Assembly: GCA_005808665.1 (NCBI GenBank)
Contig: SYLG01000126.1
Coordinates: forward strand, 1 to 59,796
DNA length: 59,796 bases
Direction of reading: 5' to 3'
Source of the DNA: Planctomycetia bacterium
GTDB taxonomy: Bacteria; Planctomycetota; Planctomycetia; Gemmatales; Gemmataceae
Shown: one piece after another, positions 10,973 to 59,796 of the stretch
How positions within the stretch are numbered: the stretch's first letter is position 1
Layout: each line of letters begins with the position of its first letter
Notes under the pieces: generated by a model
Seen by the model: the letters and a program-made list of their open reading frames with translations, nothing else
Told to the model about the DNA's origin: nothing
Databases searched by the model: none
Position numbers and translations under genes: made by a program

Positions 10973-13306
10973 ATGTTGTCCATTTTCTCGATTTTTCGCA
11001 GGGTTAAAAGGGTAAGAACTGCCAAAATAACCAAATTGGGAAAACCCAAACTCACCCTGGAGTGTTTGGAAGACAGGGCCGTTCCTGCGACCTTTTGGGT
11101 ATCACCCACCGGAAGCAATGCGGGTGCAGGCTCCCAGTTGGATCCATTCCGAACAATTTCCCATGCCCTTGGCATTACCGCTCAGGATCCCTCCAAGGAC
11201 ACGATTAACATTTTCCCTGGAACTTTTGCCGAATCCATGACCGGGCCCGCAGATCCCAATGTTCCCGGCGCCCCGGATTATACCTATGGGCTGTACATTG
11301 CTCCCACCAACCCGGTGGCTCTCCAAGGGGTGGATGCCAGCGGGGCGGCCATAACAAGTCCGGTTGGGGTTTTGGCCACCATTCTTGCCAGTGAAACCAT
11401 CGGTGGGCCCGAAACAGATATTTATAATGTAACCAATTTTGGGGTTTTTGGGGCCAGCACCGAGTTGCTTGGCTTGCGTTTTGATGCTTCCGTGGATTCG
11501 GGTTCTACCGCCGAAGGATCCGACCTGGTCACCATTTATGCCAACAGCGTTTCTGTCAAGAACAGTATCCTCCGTTCCGGGGTGACTGATCCCATGGTGG
11601 ATGAGCAGCCAACCGGTTCCAATGGGAGTGCCCTTTCCATTGTCGACCCAACCTTTACGGGAACCACCCTCCTTTCTTCCATAACCTCCTACACCATAGA
11701 CAATAACACCATTGAAGGTGGCATATTGATCAGTCATGGTTCGGGTATTGGTGCCACTCAGGCGAATTTGCAAATTACCCGAAATACCCTTAGTGATGGC
11801 TATTTCGGCAACCTCGCCATCTATGGCAACCTCAATGCGGCCGACAATCCCTTCTTTGTTTATGATGCCGCCTTGCCTACGGTGGGTGGAACAGGTGGAT
11901 TGGCCAATAACTTTATCTCCACCGAGGCAAATTCCGCTTGGCGTCAATTGGTCTATTTTTACGGTAATAGCACCTTGGCCATGACGACGGCGCAATTGAC
12001 CGCCTTTTTCGCTCAAAACATCATTCAGGACTACGCCTATGCGACCACCTCGGCAGGCGTCCCGAAGGCGACAGGCAAAGCTGCCACGGGTGGAAACCCG
12101 GGAGACAACAGCTTTTTTGGTTTTTCGATTTACAACAACATTTCCCAATTGAGCGAAGTGATCACCGATAATCCTCTAAAATCATCCTCCAACTGGTCGG
12201 TGAGTGCGGGAAACTTGGTGAAATACAGTGTCAATACCGCTGGCACCGGGTTGGTCAATCTGTCCGATTTGTTGCTTACTCCCCAGGGGGGCACACCCAC
12301 CAACTACAAAGTTGTTTTGGGAACGACCCCCAATGGGACAGGGGGAACACTCGATGTTAGAAATGTTACTTTACAAGGTGCCCTTGCTTCCGATGTGGAT
12401 GGCAATAACGCCAATAATACCATCACCGGAAACAGTGCCTCCAATGCCATCCTGGGTTTTTCAGGAACCGATAACCTGAATGGTGGCGGGGGCAATGATA
12501 CCCTTACCGGGGGAAGTGGTAATGATACCTTAAATGGCGGGGCGGGGGTCGATACGGCCGTTTTCACCGGCAATTTTAACGACTATAGGATTACCTACAA
12601 TTCTAGTTCAAAAACATTTACCCTCATTGACAACCGAATTGGGTCCCCCGATGGAACCGATGGCTGCACCAACATTGAAAAGCTCCAATTTGCGAATACA
12701 ACGGTCAATGTAGTCGTTCCGATAACAGATTATGGCACCGTCGCCATCGGTTTGGCCAATACCCCCTTGGGTGGTGTCCTTTTCATTGGAGCCGCCAATT
12801 ATGCCGAATCGATTATCATCAATCAGGATGTTTCCTTGGTGGGTTTTGGTTCGGTAATCATTCAAACCGTAACCATTAATGGCAATGCCCGATTGGGAAG
12901 TACCACGGTGAATGTCCAAGCAACAACCGTCAAAATGAATCAAAATGGGGGAACCAGGTCTCGCCCCACCGATGCGGTTTTAATCGCCTTGAATGCCCTG
13001 AACTATAACTCCGCATCCGTAATCAATTTTCGCGGAAATGACTCTAGTCTTATCAAACAAGAACAGGCAGGGATTTATTTCACTTTGGACCGCTATCGAA
13101 GGGTCAAACTTTTTGGGACTCAGATTTCCGTAACCCCAAACGTAAGGACGTCAATTACCGTGCCATTTCTAAACTACACAACCCTCCTGAGCGGAAAACC
13201 ACCTAACACTTTTATACAGACTTTAGGTTCCCCAACGCTTTCCTCCGCCTCGCCTCCTGCTCCTCGTCCCCCGTCGTCAGGTGTTTATGAATTACCCACC
13301 TATTAG
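10973..13306 (+). CDS. Large extracellular protein: LEDR-VPA N-terminus, beta-helix-like region, RTX repeats
   Basis: A 777-residue secreted or surface protein. The basic N-terminus leads to LECLEDRAVPA (about residues 30-40), a motif shared by many planctomycete giant surface proteins and by the next gene. Residues about 45-480 begin FWVSPTGSNAGAGSQLDPF and look like a right-handed beta-helix, Asn- and Thr-rich with NNTIEGG-like turns. Residues about 480-535 carry RTX-type calcium-binding repeats (GGGGNDTLTGGSGNDTL) followed by the usual NIEKLQFA segment. The last 130 residues contain PTDAVLIALNALN, which resembles a dockerin-like ending, but the rest is degenerate. AAGGAG lies 7 bases before the ATG. 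A strong hairpin terminator follows. Function is probably adhesion or cell-envelope structure. Confidence 0.85.
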   Translation: MLSIFSIFRRVKRVRTAKITKLGKPKLTLECLEDRAVPATFWVSPTGSNAGAGSQLDPFRTISHALGITAQDPSKDTINIFPGTFAESMTGPADPNVPGAPDYTYGLYIAPTNPVALQGVDASGAAITSPVGVLATILASETIGGPETDIYNVTNFGVFGASTELLGLRFDASVDSGSTAEGSDLVTIYANSVSVKNSILRSGVTDPMVDEQPTGSNGSALSIVDPTFTGTTLLSSITSYTIDNNTIEGGILISHGSGIGATQANLQITRNTLSDGYFGNLAIYGNLNAADNPFFVYDAALPTVGGTGGLANNFISTEANSAWRQLVYFYGNSTLAMTTAQLTAFFAQNIIQDYAYATTSAGVPKATGKAATGGNPGDNSFFGFSIYNNISQLSEVITDNPLKSSSNWSVSAGNLVKYSVNTAGTGLVNLSDLLLTPQGGTPTNYKVVLGTTPNGTGGTLDVRNVTLQGALASDVDGNNANNTITGNSASNAILGFSGTDNLNGGGGNDTLTGGSGNDTLNGGAGVDTAVFTGNFNDYRITYNSSSKTFTLIDNRIGSPDGTDGCTNIEKLQFANTTVNVVVPITDYGTVAIGLANTPLGGVLFIGAANYAESIIINQDVSLVGFGSVIIQTVTINGNARLGSTTVNVQATTVKMNQNGGTRSRPTDAVLIALNALNYNSASVINFRGNDSSLIKQEQAGIYFTLDRYRRVKLFGTQISVTPNVRTSITVPFLNYTTLLSGKPPNTFIQTLGSPTLSSASPPAPRPPSSGVYELPTY

Positions 13307-13353
13307 GTAAAGTTGATTGACCGGCTAGGCTTATTTCTCTTAATGGAAGTGAT

Positions 13354-13383
13354 AAAAAAGGGGCCCGGTAGGGCCCCTTTTTT
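13354..13383. terminator. Bidirectional intrinsic terminator after the RTX protein
   Basis: AAAAAAGGGGCCC is followed by the loop GGTA and the exact complement GGGCCCCTTTTTT. The stem has 7 G-C pairs extended by A-T pairs, so a T-run follows the hairpin on both strands. It lies 48 bases after the stop of the 777-aa protein. Confidence 0.85.
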
Positions 13384-13421
13384 ATGTAAAGCCATTTTTT
13401 CGATATCTCAAGTTTAAGCCA

Positions 13422-13530: not shown

Positions 13531-13835
13531 CCCAACTTATGCAGTTGGGACCATGAGCCTGATTTTTCCCGGGAAAATGGTAAATCAGCCTTAAAAAGTC
13601 GGGACTACAAATCCCCTTTACAGGTTCTGTTTCAAGGCGTTTGATCCTGATTGGCGAGAGACTGAGGAATGGGATAGCTCGGACTTTCAGCCCTTTGTGA
13701 ATTTGGGAATGGGTACCTGGGGCGGTGCCCCAGGCTGGTATGGTGCCACGCTGTTGGCGTTGAAAACATGCGCCGGTGAGAACAGAAAGGTGGCATGCCA
13801 ATCCATGTCTGTGGCCTGACAAATGCGATCCGGTC
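13531..13835 (+). repeat. Palindrome-rich dispersed repeat, copy 1
   Basis: About 305 bases closely match 59485-59792, with most positions identical by eye. It begins at CCCAACTTATGCAGTTGGG, itself an inverted repeat, and ends at GATCCGGTC. Internal modules include CCTGGGGC-GGT-GCCCCAGG (13716-13734) and CGCTGTTGGCG. No conserved reading frame explains the similarity, and differences fall in loops or keep stems pairable (CGCT against CGCC facing GGCG). A structured noncoding or mobile element is the best reading. Confidence 0.85.
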
Positions 13836-13863
13836 TTATCATACCTTTGCCGTTTTGGTTCTG

Positions 13864-13944
13864 CGGGCCAAAGGCCCGATCTGTAACAGCCTGGGCCAAC
13901 CGCCCAGGTTTCGGATCCCCCAATTATTTGAGGGCTGAAAGCCC
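13864..13944. repeat. Cluster of three short perfect palindromes
   Basis: Three hairpins lie in a row: CGGGCC-AAA-GGCCCG (13864-13878), CCTGGGC-CAACC-GCCCAGG (13890-13908) and GGGCT-GAA-AGCCC (13932-13944). They are of the same style as the modules inside the dispersed repeat just upstream and probably belong to the same array. Confidence 0.75.
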
Positions 13945-14250
13945 GATCCATTGACCACGAACCAAATGGTGGCGAGAGATTGAAACATGGGCCTCTTTTT
14001 CCCCTCCGAAATTCAACCCCTCAAACCAAGGCAAATGGTTTATATCCCTTCCAGCGTCCATGCGAACATTTCCAAACTCCTTTGTTAAAATCGGACAAGC
14101 AGCTGGCAATATCAAGTAACTTGGTCGGGACCACGGGCCGTTTCGAAATCGACATTTTCCAAAACCTCGGGAAAAACCACAGTCCTGGTCCCAAAACTGG
14201 CCAAAAAACCGTAAAAAATCACTCCAACCGCATAACATGGGTTAACCCCT

Positions 14251-14330: not shown

Positions 14331-14775
14331 GGTAAATTACATTTCCCCGCACTTAATTTCGGGGCCTGATGCTACTTTTTACCGTAGGACCAAACTTGTC
14401 CGCCCCCCTTGGGACCAGGTTTACCGGTACACAGCTGAAGCCATATAGGCTCGTTTTGCTTCTGCGATATTTTTTTAGGAAAAAACCATTAAGCTAGCTT
14501 TATTCATTCTCAAATCCCCTTGTTACCTCCAAGCTATCCTTGTTTTTCGGTTAAGTTTGGAAAACTTGAAGAGTTTGGGACGAACAGGTTGATTTTATGT
14601 CCGATTGTGCTACCTTGAAGAAACAGGCTTTCGGGGAATTAGGATATTTTGCATGCGGAGTTCCTGCCCGACCGCCGATTTTATTCAAAGGTTCTGTTCA
14701 CCTTTGGCAAAACCAAATGTTGGCCAATGCGTCTGGAAACTAGAAACTTGGCCTTTTTCTCGGGGAGAGTGTCTC

Positions 14776-17700
14776 ATGTTGCGTCGTCACCGCTGGTCTG
14801 CATCCCTTTTGCGTTTTATTTCTGGTGTAATGGGCAAAAAATTTCCCTTTCAAAAATCCAAAAAAGTTGGTATGCGGCTCGAAGCCCTGGAGGATCGAAC
14901 CGTTCCGGCCTACCTCCCCTTATTAGGAACAGGCACCACGGTGGGCTATTCTGGAGACCCAGGGGCTATAACGCAATTTTTATCAGAAGGCGACATTATA
15001 GCCGAAGGGGAATTTTATGAATCTGTCAATGCCGCCGAGACAGTGCAATACACTTTGAAAGGAATGCCTTTAGCGGGTAATCCCACCCATATTTACAACA
15101 CCGAGGGACCGGTTTTAACCCTTGGAGGTGGTAAGCTCCTCCTTGGGTCAGGAATCGTATTTGGCCGGGCCTCCGGGTTTGGAGCCACCGTCACTCCTGG
15201 CAATGAGGTTTTGGTCAATGGCAATGGGTCCGATGGTGGACAACTCACTATCATCGCCGGGGACGCTGCCGAAAATCTGAATGTAAATGTCGAGGACGGG
15301 TCGCAGGTATTGCTTGGAAACCCCGCCACTACGGATGTTGCAAGCAACTACACCCTAACCACCTACACCTTGGTAGGCTCAGGTTTTGAGGGTGCAGGTG
15401 TCCTTCAATCGATTTCGGGAACCAACATCGCTTATGGTGCTATCAATGCTACTGGCTCCATCGTAGTAGGGGCAGGAGCCGGAACCACCCTGATTTTGAA
15501 CGGCTCGGTCAATGGGGTTCGTTCTGCTACTGCGTTTGATTCCTTTTCCACCACCGGGTCGGGAACCGTGATTTTGGACAATGTCTTCCCGACGGCCACG
15601 GTTAGCTCCCTCACCCCTTCCACGACAAACGATCCCGACATTTCCTTTCAGGTCATCCTTTCCGAAGAACCCCATGACCCCCTCACCCTGGAAAGTTTGC
15701 TTGTAACGGGGGGAACGGTCACAGCTTTTTCCCAAGTAGACGCATTGACTTATACCTATTCTGTCCTTTCGGACACCCAAGCGGGATCGATCGGAACAGT
15801 AACGGCCATGGTGGGGGCAGGGGCGTTTAGTGATTCGGCACATCTAATGAACCCGGACTCCAATACTGAATCGGTAAGTGTGGATCGTGCCCCTCCAACT
15901 GCCTCGGGCACCTTTACCGATATCAATGCCAGCCAGGGGAGTGCCAGTCAAACCACGATTGAAGTCCAATTATCCGATGTGGGTGTTGGGATTAACCTTG
16001 CCAGCATTTCCCCACTCAATATTTCGGTGGGGACAAGCGATGGAGGAAGCCTTACAGTTAGTGGGGCCAGTTTCAACAACACCACCAATGTTGCAACCTA
16101 TGTCATTCAATCGGGAAGCACCTGGGCCGGGTTGTCCTCTGCCGGGGAAATTACTTTAACTGTCGTGCTAAATCCCGGATCGGTCACCGATCAGCTAGGC
16201 AATCAGGCCGAAGAGGCTACTCTGGGAAGTTTCCTGGTGGACACTACCCTTCCTGTTCTTTTGGTAAACGGAGGTTTGCCGATTGATTCGACCAATGCCG
16301 GCCAAGCCATTTTGGTTACGAGTTCAAAGCCAATCGCCTCGTTTAATGCTCTAGCCTTTTCAGCAAACGGTGGCCGAGTAACCGAAGTAGTACTCTCCCC
16401 TTTGGATCCAACGAACTCGACCCTTTTGGTGACCATTAGCCCCGCGCTGGGGGCGATACAATCTTTGATCCAACTCAATATCGCAGCAGGAGCGGTAACG
16501 GATGCGATAGGCAACAGTTCCAATCCGGTAACACCCGCTCCCCAGTATATTTATGACACCATTCGCCCGGTTGCCGGGCTTTACATTGCACCCCCGGAAA
16601 ATGTCAACAACACCAATGCTGGATCCAATTTAGGGGTCGATTTCAGGATTACGGACCCCGCCCGAGAGGGAGTCCCTGGGTCCGGGGTCAATTTCAATTC
16701 GATTGTCAATGCCATCGTCAATGTCCTGGATCCCAATGGCGATCCTGTTTCGGTTATTAACACCTTTTTTGACCCTTTGGATGGTTATTGTTTTACCGAA
16801 ATCGTCCCCCCAACCGGGGCTTGGAATACTTCACCCCAAGGACTCTACTCAATAACCATTGTGGGCTACCAGGATTTTGCTGGAAACATCGGCGAATTGT
16901 TTCCCCTTGGATCGTTTTATGTGGCCACCGAACAGCCCACCGTAACGCTTTCGGCCGATCCGGTTGTAGGCATCGGCAACATTTCCACGGTTACCATGGT
17001 CATCGATTCCCCGGCGGGATTGACCACCACTACACCAACTCTTGCCAGCCTTTCGGTCACTGGAAATGGGGTAGTTAGTAACCTGCAAATTGTCGGGCCC
17101 AATACCTATACTTTTGATGTTACTCCGACCACAGCTGTGGCATTAGTAACGGTTACCTTTAAAGCCGATGGAGTTACCGATCAGGCAGGCAATGGGAACT
17201 TGGCGTCTAGCCCCCTGGCTTTGGCCTTTGCTGTTCTTTCTCCCATTCCTTCAGTTGTTTTGGGTGTTCCAAGTCCGACCAATCAAACCACCTTTTCGGG
17301 CACGGTTGTATTCACCCAGGCGGTGGACTTGGCAAGTGGCAGTGGAGCATTGCAACTTGCTGATTTTGATGTAACGGGAACGGTTGTCGATTTCTCCTCC
17401 GAGGTCAGTGCAGACGGGATCACTTTCCTTTTTACCATGGAAGTTGCCAATACCGATCAAACGATAACGGCCAATGTCAAAGCCGGAATCGCAAACTCCC
17501 AAGGGACAACCCCCGTTGCAAACCTTGTGAGTTCACCTTTTTCACTCGACATTGTGGTAACTGATCCCACCGCAGCCTTGGTAGCACCCATTGCCCCCAT
17601 AAATTCCTCCATCGGCACCACGACAGAGGTATCGTTCCAGGTGCAATTCACCACAGGTAGTGGGATTGCGATGGATTTTAGTAATCTCACCAGGCTTGGG

Positions 17701-20700
17701 GATGCCATTTCCATTAAGGGCGGAGTAGGCGGCCTTCAGACATTGCCTGTCATGGTTGATCCGTTGCTTCCTCCCAATGCAACCACCCGGCTGGTAAGCT
17801 ATGTTATCCTTCCCCCACCCACCGTCGATGGTTGGTATAACCCTGACTTCCAAGGGGATTATCAGGTTTCCATCTTAGCGGATGAAGTATTTGATGTAGC
17901 GGGCAATACCAATCTTGAGACCATAATACAATCGAATTTGGCGGTGGTAACAAGCCGACCCGTTGGTTTGATGAATTGTGACGATGTCGATGCCAATTCG
18001 CAATGGATCAATGTGGCGATTTTGGCGAATGCCGCCACACCAGGCCAAATTGCCATCCGAATGTATCCTTCCAATGTAGATGGGGCCACCCTTTCAACCT
18101 CCGTCCTGGACCTTAACATTGTTCCAAGGGCTTCCAACTTTTCTGCATTAGGATTCACCGTGGTATCCGTTTCCACTTGGCAATTGGATACCGTTGAAAA
18201 TGCTTATTATTTGGATATTCAACTGGCCCCCGCCTTGGATGCGGTGGGTGATACCAACTCGGTAGGTGCCGTTTCTTTAGCCCTCAATCCCAACGCCTAT
18301 TTTGACATTTATGGCAATGGCAATTCCGGGGTGGGTTCCCTCAATAGCCAAGGTTATTTATCCTTTTTAGGTATTGACCGACTTTCCCCGGTAGGGTCCA
18401 CCCCAGGAGTGATCCCCACCAAATTGGGTGCCTTAAACGCCTCTGATCCGGTGCAAATATCCATCAATTACTCGGATGCCACTTCGGGATTGAACCCGAA
18501 CACAATGGCAGCATCCAATTTGATTGTCACCCTGGAGGGAGATACCACCACCAATGTTGCCATTATTACTGGTGAGTTGGATCCGGTGGACGCCAGCACC
18601 TTTAACTACACCTTAACTCCCTTATCCGGGGCATGGGCGAACGGCACCTACACGGTTCGTTTCACCAATGACCCCGCCAGTGCGGTTTATGACAATGCCC
18701 AATCCGAGGCGTTTGCACAAACCAGCGGGAACGGAATTGCCTCAGGCCCCGTCCTAAGTGGGGGAGTGGCCGTTGCGTTCCAGGTGGATATTACGGCCCC
18801 CCTGGTAAACGAAGCCCTTATTTTGGGACCAACCCCCACGAATGTTTCCCCATTGTCAGCATCTGTCACCTTTAGTGAAAAGGTGCAAGGATTTGGCCTT
18901 GGAAATATTAGCTTGCTCAATGCAAACCTCGAGGCAGGTGGCATTGCCTCCTTGGACAACCAAACCTTTACCTTTAACCTGATTCCGGCCACTCAAAATG
19001 GCTCCATTTCTTTCAGCATTGTTTCAAGCGGCATTTCGGACCTGTTTGGCAATCCTTTGGCAATCGGTGCTACTTCTAATGTGGTGGTGATCGATTTGGT
19101 TGGGCCTGTGGGCGTGATCACCCAGGCTCCCCTCAACATTAGTGCAACTAACGGTGCTACTTCCACCAATTCCTTCTCCGTGACCTTTGCCGATGCCATG
19201 GGATTGGACGCCAGCACTATAACCGTGACTAATTACCTGGTGGACAATGGTGCCACGATTACCTCGGTTTCATTGGATGGTAACATCGCCACCTATGTGG
19301 TAACCGCCCCTGCCTCGGATTGGGCCTCCTCCCCCGAAGGAACTTACTCCCTTACCCCCAATCCCGCAAGTGCTCCCAAAGATCCTTTGGGAAATAGTGC
19401 TACCATGCCAAGCACCAGTTTCCAGGTGAATACGGTAAGTCCAACCGTGATTGCAACTTTCAATGAGGTTGGACCGACCAATGTTACGCCCCTTACTGTG
19501 AACCTCGTATTATCGGAACCCATCACCTTCAATGCCTCCAATGAGGACTTTTCCAACCTGTTTACGGTGGTGAATGGGTCGGTCCTTTTATGGGTCCCCA
19601 ACGACCCAACCAATGTTACGGTGACCATTGAACCCACAACGGATCCTCTTGGTGAACGAGTGGTCTCCTTTAGCGTGGTTGCCGGTGCGGGAGTAAACGC
19701 GGCAGGAAACCCCAACCTGGCTTCGAATGTCACCACCATTGACTATGACAACCTTGGTCCGGTGCTAAGCATTGTTCCTCAGGGACTAATCGATGATGAG
19801 ACCAAACAACAAGTTGTCACCGTGGTGGTTAACCTGAACCCTGCCGGAAAATACAGCTTGGCGGGCAATCCCGAGAGTGGGATCATCCTTACCAACGCCA
19901 CCTATGTACCTGAGAGCTTTACTCCCCTTTCCGATTTCAACAACAGCTATAGATTCCAAATCTCCGCAAACTCAACAGGACAGGTAGTGGTAGGATTTGG
20001 CAATGATGCCTTTGATGATTCCTTGGGAAATGGCAGCCTTTTGACCGCAACGACTTATACCTACAGAACTGCCTTGACCGTGGCGGTCTCCTCACCGGAT
20101 GTGACCCAGGGTGGAACCACCTCCGACCTTTCCTTAAGCTTTGAGGCACTATTCGACGCCCCTATTGCTTCGTTTAAACCGATTGCAGAATTCTTTGATG
20201 TCTCCAATGCAACCATTACTAACCTGGTCCAAGACCCAACCAACCTGGCAAGGTTTACCTACACGGTAATCCCCACCACGGCAGGTGAGGTTTCGGTGAA
20301 GGTCAATGCGAATGCCGCCATAGACACCTTGGGGAACTCCAACTCTGCCTCCACGCCCTTTACCTTTATTTCCACTCCGGCCCAGGTAGAAGCAACGCTA
20401 TTCGGTCTCAATGTCACCCCGGTAACTTCGCTTGCGGCCATTACCGTGGTTTTGGTCTTTAGTGAACCGGTTACAGGAATGGATGCGTCCAACTTTGTCA
20501 GCAAGTTTACCATTGGTGGGGCCACGATTCTCGAGGATTCCTTCTCACCGGATGGAACCGGTGAAGTTTATAGCTTTATCATTAACCCAACCTCGGTAGC
20601 GGGATCCACTAGCCCTGTTTCGGTATCCCTAATCCTTAAGGAAGGCGTTGTTACGCCCAGCAACCAAGCTTCCAACCTATTATCTTTTAGCTATGTCAAT

Positions 20701-21681
20701 GCACCCTTGTTTATTGGCCAAGGGGCAGGTTCGGTGGTGGCCCGAGGCAACCCGGATCGGAGCATCATTTCGATCCAGGCCTTTGGCACAGGGTACACGG
20801 GTGGCGTAAGTGTTGCTGGAGCAAACTTTGGCGGCTTTACGGGAAGCAACACAATCGACCTTTTAGCCGTCGCCATGCAAAATGGCCAGGGACATGTGGT
20901 GGTGTTCAACGGTGAAACGGGTACCAGCACCCCATCGGTTAGCTTCTATGCCTTCCCCGGGTTTAATGGCGTGTCCTATGTGGGTGCAGGGGATGTCAAT
21001 GCCGACGGGTTCAATGACATAGTCGTTTCCGCTGGACCCGGTGGTGGACCCAATGTCAAGGTTTACTCGGGAAATCCCGCTGATAAGGTTGCGGATAAAC
21101 CGGGCCTGATATTCAGCTTCTTCGCCTATGCCTCCTCATTCGGTGGCGGTGCTTCCGTCAGCGTCGCAGATGTCAACGGGGATGGAGCGGCCGATGTAAT
21201 CACTGGGGCAGGTCCAAGCGGCGGGCCCCATGTAAAGGTCTTCTCCGGTGTTGATTTGGCAAACAAAACCATTAACCTGTTGGCGAGTTTCTACGCAGGA
21301 AACCCTTCCAACACCACCGGCGTCTTTGTTGCGGCGGGTGACATGACAGGCGATGGTTTGGCCGAAATCATCACCAGTTTTGGTTTAGGTTCACAACCCA
21401 CGGTAACCGGGTATGCCATGGTACCCAATGACGAGGGAACCTACTTTACCGCCGATCCTTTCAACACCTTTAATGCCTATTCCACCGGGTTCACCGGCGG
21501 GGTGCGGCTTGCTTTGGTGAATGCACCGGCGGAAGGAACTCTCGAACTTGTCACGGCCCCTGGTCAAAGCGGTGGACCCAACATCAGAATCTGGGACCTT
21601 ACCAACGAAGGAACCTTTGAACTGATTATTAGTGAGTTTGCAGGCGACCCCAGCAACCTGGATGGCCTCTGGGTTGGTTAA
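14776..21681 (+). CDS. Giant extracellular Ig-like / FG-GAP repeat protein (2301 aa)
   Basis: A surface or secreted adhesin-like protein. The start is ATG 14776, with GGGGAGAG 6 bases upstream; the frame is open further left but without protein character. A basic N-terminus is followed by LEALEDRTVPAY (about residues 34-45), the same motif as in the preceding large protein. From about residue 270 to 1980 there are roughly 15 Ig-like repeats of 100-120 residues. Each runs from a phrase such as TFSEKV or VFSEPV to one such as DLFGNPL or DQAGNGN. This is the pattern of bacterial Ig-like domains with 'VTDAAGN' turns. Residues about 2060-2290 hold FG-GAP/VCBS-type repeats with calcium loops (GDVNADGFNDIVV, ADVNGDGAADVITG). 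Strong terminator downstream. The probable job is adhesion or envelope matrix. Confidence 0.9.
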   Translation: MLRRHRWSASLLRFISGVMGKKFPFQKSKKVGMRLEALEDRTVPAYLPLLGTGTTVGYSGDPGAITQFLSEGDIIAEGEFYESVNAAETVQYTLKGMPLAGNPTHIYNTEGPVLTLGGGKLLLGSGIVFGRASGFGATVTPGNEVLVNGNGSDGGQLTIIAGDAAENLNVNVEDGSQVLLGNPATTDVASNYTLTTYTLVGSGFEGAGVLQSISGTNIAYGAINATGSIVVGAGAGTTLILNGSVNGVRSATAFDSFSTTGSGTVILDNVFPTATVSSLTPSTTNDPDISFQVILSEEPHDPLTLESLLVTGGTVTAFSQVDALTYTYSVLSDTQAGSIGTVTAMVGAGAFSDSAHLMNPDSNTESVSVDRAPPTASGTFTDINASQGSASQTTIEVQLSDVGVGINLASISPLNISVGTSDGGSLTVSGASFNNTTNVATYVIQSGSTWAGLSSAGEITLTVVLNPGSVTDQLGNQAEEATLGSFLVDTTLPVLLVNGGLPIDSTNAGQAILVTSSKPIASFNALAFSANGGRVTEVVLSPLDPTNSTLLVTISPALGAIQSLIQLNIAAGAVTDAIGNSSNPVTPAPQYIYDTIRPVAGLYIAPPENVNNTNAGSNLGVDFRITDPAREGVPGSGVNFNSIVNAIVNVLDPNGDPVSVINTFFDPLDGYCFTEIVPPTGAWNTSPQGLYSITIVGYQDFAGNIGELFPLGSFYVATEQPTVTLSADPVVGIGNISTVTMVIDSPAGLTTTTPTLASLSVTGNGVVSNLQIVGPNTYTFDVTPTTAVALVTVTFKADGVTDQAGNGNLASSPLALAFAVLSPIPSVVLGVPSPTNQTTFSGTVVFTQAVDLASGSGALQLADFDVTGTVVDFSSEVSADGITFLFTMEVANTDQTITANVKAGIANSQGTTPVANLVSSPFSLDIVVTDPTAALVAPIAPINSSIGTTTEVSFQVQFTTGSGIAMDFSNLTRLGDAISIKGGVGGLQTLPVMVDPLLPPNATTRLVSYVILPPPTVDGWYNPDFQGDYQVSILADEVFDVAGNTNLETIIQSNLAVVTSRPVGLMNCDDVDANSQWINVAILANAATPGQIAIRMYPSNVDGATLSTSVLDLNIVPRASNFSALGFTVVSVSTWQLDTVENAYYLDIQLAPALDAVGDTNSVGAVSLALNPNAYFDIYGNGNSGVGSLNSQGYLSFLGIDRLSPVGSTPGVIPTKLGALNASDPVQISINYSDATSGLNPNTMAASNLIVTLEGDTTTNVAIITGELDPVDASTFNYTLTPLSGAWANGTYTVRFTNDPASAVYDNAQSEAFAQTSGNGIASGPVLSGGVAVAFQVDITAPLVNEALILGPTPTNVSPLSASVTFSEKVQGFGLGNISLLNANLEAGGIASLDNQTFTFNLIPATQNGSISFSIVSSGISDLFGNPLAIGATSNVVVIDLVGPVGVITQAPLNISATNGATSTNSFSVTFADAMGLDASTITVTNYLVDNGATITSVSLDGNIATYVVTAPASDWASSPEGTYSLTPNPASAPKDPLGNSATMPSTSFQVNTVSPTVIATFNEVGPTNVTPLTVNLVLSEPITFNASNEDFSNLFTVVNGSVLLWVPNDPTNVTVTIEPTTDPLGERVVSFSVVAGAGVNAAGNPNLASNVTTIDYDNLGPVLSIVPQGLIDDETKQQVVTVVVNLNPAGKYSLAGNPESGIILTNATYVPESFTPLSDFNNSYRFQISANSTGQVVVGFGNDAFDDSLGNGSLLTATTYTYRTALTVAVSSPDVTQGGTTSDLSLSFEALFDAPIASFKPIAEFFDVSNATITNLVQDPTNLARFTYTVIPTTAGEVSVKVNANAAIDTLGNSNSASTPFTFISTPAQVEATLFGLNVTPVTSLAAITVVLVFSEPVTGMDASNFVSKFTIGGATILEDSFSPDGTGEVYSFIINPTSVAGSTSPVSVSLILKEGVVTPSNQASNLLSFSYVNAPLFIGQGAGSVVARGNPDRSIISIQAFGTGYTGGVSVAGANFGGFTGSNTIDLLAVAMQNGQGHVVVFNGETGTSTPSVSFYAFPGFNGVSYVGAGDVNADGFNDIVVSAGPGGGPNVKVYSGNPADKVADKPGLIFSFFAYASSFGGGASVSVADVNGDGAADVITGAGPSGGPHVKVFSGVDLANKTINLLASFYAGNPSNTTGVFVAAGDMTGDGLAEIITSFGLGSQPTVTGYAMVPNDEGTYFTADPFNTFNAYSTGFTGGVRLALVNAPAEGTLELVTAPGQSGGPNIRIWDLTNEGTFELIISEFAGDPSNLDGLWVG

Positions 21682-59484: not shown

Positions 59485-59796
59485 CCCAAGTTACGTAGTT
59501 GGGACCATGAAAACCGTGTTTTTCCCGGAAAAAAGTTAAATCAGCCTGCAAAAATCGGGACTACAAATCCCCTTTACCGGTTCTGTTTCAAGGCGTTTGA
59601 TCCTGATTGGTGAGCGACTGAGGAATGGGATAGCTCGGGCTTTCAGCCCTTAGTGAATTTGGGATATGGGTACCTGGGGCGTTGCCCCAGGCTGGTAGGG
59701 TGCCACGCCGTTGGCGTTAAAAACATACGCCGGTGAAAATAGGAAGGTGGCATGCCAATCCATGTCTGGGGCCTGACAAATACGATCCGGTCGAAT
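59485..59796 (+). repeat. Palindrome-rich dispersed repeat, copy 2 (runs to the window edge)
   Basis: About 308 bases match 13531-13835 in the same orientation. Modules are GGGCT-TTC-AGCCC (59637-59649), CCTGGGGC-GTT-GCCCCAGG (59673-59691) and CGCC-GTT-GGCG with a later ACGCCGGTG. The first and third stems are perfect here where copy 1 has a mismatch and a G-T pair. The homology may continue beyond the window. Confidence 0.85.

What the first reader, a model, noticed from the sequence alone, without database searches (positions are those of the whole stretch)
13531..13944. Dispersed repeat built of tandem short palindromes, present twice in this window
A unit of about 305 bp recurs 46 kb away at 59485-59796. 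It is made of GGGC/GCCC-type hairpins with 3-nt loops. Differences between copies tend to keep the stems pairable or improve them. Three more hairpins of the same style follow copy 1. This points to a structured noncoding or mobile element. Similar GC-palindrome arrays are familiar to me from planctomycete genomes, but I know of no defined function.
Basis: partly seen in the sequence, partly recalled or inferred. Interest (0 to 1): 0.65.

Follow-up and report, generated by a model that had tools for sequence, protein, structure and literature searches.

The report
Triple-hairpin REP doublet inside a MITE
The repeat is a small non-coding jumping element that has swallowed a second, unrelated mobile repeat made of three-hairpin units, and those units turn out in other bacteria to flank genes of a single-strand transposase group for which no such repeats had been reported.

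Summary
The full unit is about 711-722 bp (window 13531-14241): a terminal-inverted-repeat MITE (ends CCCAAGTTACGCAGTTGG, 4-bp YTAR target) carrying a ~350-bp insert with two inverted three-hairpin units. The genome has ~40 copies of the repeat; copy 2 is cut only by the contig end. Shorter MITE copies lack the insert, and a few hairpin units lie outside MITEs, so the element is a mosaic. The MITE ends and targets resemble IS1380-family elements, but no autonomous partner with the same ends was found. The hairpin unit (CM R1) has strong compensatory changes and occurs 13-149 times in each of 11 other genomes, mostly Verrucomicrobiota. There, and in relatives of this genome, it flanks ~150-aa Y1 transposases (motifs of TnpA_Y1 'subclass 1.2') on both sides, inverted, often 6-50 bp from the gene. 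Unit and transposase co-occur across 98 relatives (OR 26, p=1e-11). The window genome has 66 units but no such transposase. So this is an orphan REPIN-like doublet hitch-hiking in an IS1380-type MITE. Mobilisation by either transposase is inferred, not shown.

The parts
13531..14241 (+). complete mosaic element, copy 1 (711 bp)
   Evidence: blastn and alignment of 9 full copies; TIR at both ends
13531..13548 (+). left terminal inverted repeat CCCAACTTATGCAGTTGG (consensus CCCAAGTTACGCAGTTGG)
   Evidence: 168 TIR matches in genome against 5 for the reversed control pattern
14224..14241 (-). right terminal inverted repeat
   Evidence: flank TTAA at 14242-14245; left flank TTGT is not a clean duplicate in this copy
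13653..14000 (.). inserted hairpin cassette, absent from 358-363-bp MITE copies; boundaries approximate
   Evidence: alignment of long and short MITE forms
13679..13772 (+). three-hairpin unit 1 (H1 GGACTTTCAGCCC, H2 CCTGGGGCGGTGCCCCAGG, H3 ACGCTGTTGGCGT)
   Evidence: CM R1, 82.5 bits, E 3e-18
13853..13946 (-). three-hairpin unit 2, inverted
   Evidence: CM R1, 76.7 bits, E 8e-17
59485..59796 (+). copy 2 of the element, cut by the end of the contig
   Evidence: TTAA directly before it
59635..59729 (+). three-hairpin unit 1 of copy 2
   Evidence: CM R1, 90.5 bits

Best explanation
It is a non-autonomous transposon (MITE) of IS1380 type, with TIRs and 4-bp YTAR targets, that acquired by insertion a REPIN-like doublet: two inverted copies of a ~95-nt unit of three GC hairpins. 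The unit belongs to a dispersed REP-like family whose cognate enzyme is a ~150-aa HUH/Y1 transposase with the motifs of TnpA_Y1 subclass 1.2 (DHVH, WQ, Y...Q..HH). In genomes that have it, the gene sits between two inverted units, like a REPtron. Shown: mosaic structure, TIRs, target duplications in several copies, one empty site, stem covariation, unit-transposase adjacency and co-occurrence, and no detectable transposase of that type in this genome. Inferred: that an IS1380-type enzyme moved the MITE in trans, that the Y1 enzyme recognises the single-stranded hairpins, and that the cassette now spreads mainly as a passenger of the MITE.
For: MITE: TIR alignment and boundaries; 4-mers identical on both sides in 9 of 27 complete elements, including asymmetric CTAA/CTAA twice; one copy interrupts an IS1380 (PF13701) transposase remnant at C32, and removing element plus one CTAG gives a gapless tblastn alignment across the junction. 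IS1380 type: intact IS1380 elements of relatives have 4-bp CTAG duplications and ends such as CCTGGATTGCGCACCTGG (11/18 to the MITE end). Mosaic: 358-363-bp MITEs without the insert; units outside MITEs at C9, C35, C64. Unit family: covariation over 40 sequences, 98.1% paired, 48 double-change cells against 15.7 shuffled, the third helix not being part of the search pattern; 13-149 units in 11 other genomes. Enzyme link: units on both sides of the gene at fixed positions, gaps mostly 6-49 bp, and 36/8/8/46 co-occurrence; no unit near 29 IS1380 loci; unit-flanked proteins cluster on the tree (5 changes against 10 shuffled, 0/500). Own genome: 66 units, zero such transposase.
Against: No autonomous element with the same TIRs was found here or in 36 relatives. 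TIR similarity to the IS1380 remnants of the same genome is weak (8-9 of 18). Target duplications are imperfect in most copies, and because TTAA is palindromic many pairs cannot separate a duplication from a longer TIR; among 16 non-palindromic left targets 2 fit a duplication and 2 fit a longer TIR. 8 relatives have units without the transposase and 8 the reverse. Six training sequences groups of R1 came from transposase loci, so those matches are expected by construction; the 24 loci are independent of the training set.
Confidence: 0.77

Rival explanations
1. The whole 711-bp unit is one ordinary MITE whose palindromes are simply its own interior (deleted IS interior), with no link to a Y1 transposase.
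For: All complete hairpin-bearing copies with two TIRs have the same layout; TIRs and targets are those of a MITE.
Against: MITEs of the same family lack the insert; the same unit occurs without MITE ends in this genome and in Verrucomicrobiota and Acidobacteria genomes next to Y1 genes.
Confidence: 0.08
2. The hairpin cassette is a structured RNA or bidirectional terminator selected for a host function, and mobility is secondary.
For: Strong stem covariation and folding below shuffles (z -3.0 as DNA); intergenic position in the window (between ORFs 10973-13306 and 14605-21681).
Against: No Rfam match in the window except a tRNA; copy number varies from 13 to 149 between genomes and no match is found in 54 of 99 relatives; the units sit at fixed distances from a transposase gene.
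Confidence: 0.1
3. The element is mobilised by the single Y1 protein of this genome (C137:11910, 202 aa) rather than by an IS1380 enzyme.
For: It is the only Y1_Tnp match in the genome.
Against: Different type (NHLH, no Y...Q..HH; below cut-off for REP_Tyr_transpos), no unit within about 1.5 kb, and TIRs with 4-bp target duplication are not the IS200/REP mode of insertion (established knowledge).
Confidence: 0.05

Closest known systems
IS1380-family insertion sequences (PF13701) and their derivatives
   Same: 4-bp YTAR (CTAG) target duplication, ends beginning CC[CT]..., 11/18 identity of ends to the IS1380 of relative G013
   Different: no transposase gene, 280-720 bp, ends otherwise diverged, no autonomous partner found
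REPINs / REPtrons with RAYT (TnpA_REP), GTAG REP superfamily (PMC3733652, PMC3116915)
   Same: dispersed GC palindromes, inverted doublets, copies flanking a Y1 transposase gene
   Different: unit is three hairpins in ~95 nt instead of one of 20-40 nt; cognate protein is IS200-like (NF033573), not NF047646 RAYT; no GTAG foot in this unit, although GTAG-like feet occur at the middle hairpin of some sister units
TnpA_Y1 subclass 1.2 (PMC6006769)
   Same: key motifs DH[IV]H, WQ, Y...Q..HH, ~150 aa
   Different: that survey lists 'no' REP for subclass 1.2 and mainly Cyanobacteria and Bacteroidetes; here genes with these motifs in other phyla carry triple-hairpin flanks
TnpA_Y1 class 3 with 'atypical secondary structures' in Planctomycetes and Acidobacteria (PMC6006769)
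   Same: gene flanked by several atypical structures, high copy number in the genome
   Different: class 3 motifs NHVH, W[TA], YV..EQ are not those found here

Membership tests
MITE | terminal inverted repeats | tested here: met
   18-bp TIR, 168 matches in genome against 5 control
MITE | short, many copies, no coding capacity | tested here: met
   280-720 bp, ~40 matches to the hairpin-bearing form; frame-breaking indels
MITE | target site duplication | tested here: inconclusive
   identical 4-mers in 9 of 27 elements; CTAA/CTAA in 2; one clean empty site; others imperfect
IS1380 family | DDE_Tnp_1_4 transposase between the same ends | tested here: not met
   only remnants in own genome, with other ends; none with these ends in 36 relatives
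IS1380 family | 4-bp YTAR target and similar end sequence | tested here: inconclusive
   target matches; end identity 7-11 of 18
REPIN (hairpin cassette) | two REP units in inverted orientation, dispersed in the genome | tested here: met
   units 13679-13772 + and 13853-13946 -; 66 units in genome
REPIN (hairpin cassette) | linked Y1 transposase gene flanked by the units | tested here: met
   met in other genomes; in the window genome itself absent
GTAG REP superfamily | GTAG/GTGG tetranucleotide at hairpin foot | tested here: not met
   sequence before H2 on the other strand is ACCAG; GTAG present only in some sister units
TnpA_Y1 subclass 1.2 (the linked enzyme) | DH[IV]H, WQ, Y...Q..HH, ~148 aa | tested here: met
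   motif list; definition from PMC6006769; the published HMM itself was not available
Rfam structured RNA | match to a family at gathering score | tested here: not met
   only a tRNA in the window

The most novel reading that the evidence does not exclude
Triple-hairpin units are the recognised ends of a so far undescribed REP/transposon system built on TnpA_Y1 subclass 1.2 and spread over Verrucomicrobiota, Acidobacteriota and related phyla. Each enzyme lineage has its own stem sequences within a fixed H1-H2-H3 architecture, and orphaned units can be re-mobilised by capture in an unrelated DDE-type MITE.
Probability: 0.65. Interest if true: 0.72.

Novelty: new variant of a known kind. Interest (0 to 1): 0.6.

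Why it matters
It gives a concrete origin and vehicle for a very common kind of GC-palindrome array in these genomes. It also supplies candidate DNA substrates for a Y1 transposase subclass whose survey reported no associated REP (PMC6006769), so the question 'what does subclass 1.2 act on' becomes testable. And it documents capture of a HUH-type repeat by a DDE-type MITE, a route by which REP-like repeats could spread without their own enzyme.

Tried and rejected
Coding sequence: rejected by indels of 1, 2, 4, 5 and 8 nt. Known RNA family: none. RAYT-like protein of this genome as the mobiliser: wrong type, no units nearby. A second repeat at contig C12 (L033) looked like an autonomous end, but one search showed it is another 21-place repeat lying next to the TIR. 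Autonomous partner of the MITE by TIR pattern in 36 relatives: nothing convincing. Class 3 TnpA_Y1 as the linked enzyme: motifs do not fit. The strict triple-hairpin test misses units with a 4-bp H1, including this one, so 33/73 is a lower bound. Literature searches in the held library for REP plus Verrucomicrobia plus IS200, or REPIN plus MITE plus IS1380, gave no description of this unit; the library is partial.

Full report
Observation. The window is an entire contig, and copy 2 is truncated only by its end. Extending the comparison showed that the repeat does not stop at 13944 but at 14241, giving a unit of 711-722 bp in complete copies.

Outer element. Complete copies begin CCCAAGTTACGCAGTTGG and end with its reverse complement; this 18-mer occurs 168 times at up to 3 mismatches against 5 for the reversed control. 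Flanks are mostly TTAA, CTAA, TTAG or CTAG. Identical 4-mers flank 9 of 27 complete elements; two of these are asymmetric (CTAA/CTAA), but two other asymmetric cases read as a longer TIR, so the duplication is well supported only in part. One copy interrupts an IS1380 transposase remnant at C32:18940-20472; taking out the element and one CTAG gives a gapless protein alignment across the junction, although the frame has a TAG there. Intact IS1380 elements in relatives duplicate CTAG and have ends similar in part (7-11 of 18). No autonomous element with the MITE's own ends was found. I therefore call it IS1380-type by resemblance, not an IS1380 member.

Mosaic structure. MITEs of 279-363 bp have the same ends and no hairpin array; 515-535-bp forms carry a different GC palindrome array and nested ends; the 711-722-bp form carries the cassette, entering after GATCCTGATT at about 13652 and leaving at about 14000. 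Hairpin units without MITE ends occur at C9, C35 and C64. The sister genome G001 has the MITE ends but at most one weak unit elsewhere.

The unit. Each half of the cassette has H1 (GGGC-TTTCA-GCCC), H2 (8-bp stem, 3-nt loop), a conserved CTGGTATG linker and H3 (5-bp stem). A pattern for H1 and H2 found 40 stretches of named genomes, mostly Verrucomicrobiota, with an Acidobacteria and a proteobacterial MAG (the pattern was restrictive, so this is not a census). H3, not part of the pattern, is present in the copies read, with compensatory changes (CG:23, GC:16 at one pair). Over 40 sequences 98.1% of stem cells pair, 48 cells have double changes (15.7 shuffled, 0/500), and slid structures fall to 28-62%. 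Within this genome the result is similar, though part of it reflects the two fixed unit types of the cassette.

The enzyme link. All 20 tested unit-bearing genomes have Y1_Tnp proteins, but many bacteria do; the stronger evidence is position. Of 30 Y1 loci, 15 have units with E below 1e-4, typically on both sides of a ~150-aa gene in opposite orientation with H1 innermost. In relatives of the window genome, none of which trained the model, units again flank the homologous genes, with gaps of 6-49 bp in 13 of 15 listed pairs. Units and gene co-occur across 98 relatives (36 both, 8, 8, 46 neither; Fisher p 1.3e-11, not corrected for phylogeny). 29 IS1380 loci had no unit, and unit-flanked proteins cluster on a tree. 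The proteins are IS200-like by NCBIfam and carry DHVH, WQ and Y...Q..HH, the signature given for TnpA_Y1 subclass 1.2, for which that survey lists no REP (PMC6006769).

A wider rule. Genes of this type that R1 does not match still often have three hairpins on each side, with quite different stem sequences. With strict criteria 33 of 73 flanks of 38 such genes have the triple array, against 4 of 394 windows further out in the same loci and 2 of 3650 shuffles. Several of these middle hairpins have a GTAG-like foot on the other strand, as REPs do (GTAG definition from PMC3733652).

Interpretation. The cassette is best read as an orphan REPIN-like doublet: 66 units but no subclass-1.2 gene in a genome rated 100% complete (a collapsed or unassembled gene cannot be wholly excluded). 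Most copies now sit inside the MITE, so its spread here is most simply explained by MITE transposition. Which enzyme moved what is inferred.

Noticed in passing
L084 1385-1919 and 6415-6930; L086 1143-1677; L087 13834-14368; L235 (C104:12658-13172): 515-535-bp MITE form with a different GC palindrome array (ATTCCCCTCC...GGAGGGGTGCCCG...CGGGGTGG) and a nested MITE end; the same array also stands next to units at C9, C35 and C81.
   Followed up: partly
L223 1277-2292 (C9:8276-9291): Array of several three-hairpin units in both orientations with no MITE ends, the best native (non-hitch-hiking) locus seen in this genome.
   Followed up: partly
L033 1501-1636 and 20 further places: Another high-copy repeat (21 places, 97-100% identical) at which contigs end; not related to the finding.
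   Followed up: no
window 13352-13385: Perfect 15-bp inverted repeat ATAAAAAAGGGGCCC/GGGCCCCTTTTTTAT with a T run, looks like an intrinsic terminator downstream of ORF 10973-13306.
   Followed up: no
L199 402-592: A pair of three-hairpin units near a longer Y1 protein (NHVH, 268 aa), not of the subclass-1.2 type.
   Followed up: no
L031 (C137:11910-12113): The only Y1_Tnp protein of this genome, 202 aa with TFTTYGTWLPG, below the RAYT cut-off and without units nearby.
   Followed up: partly
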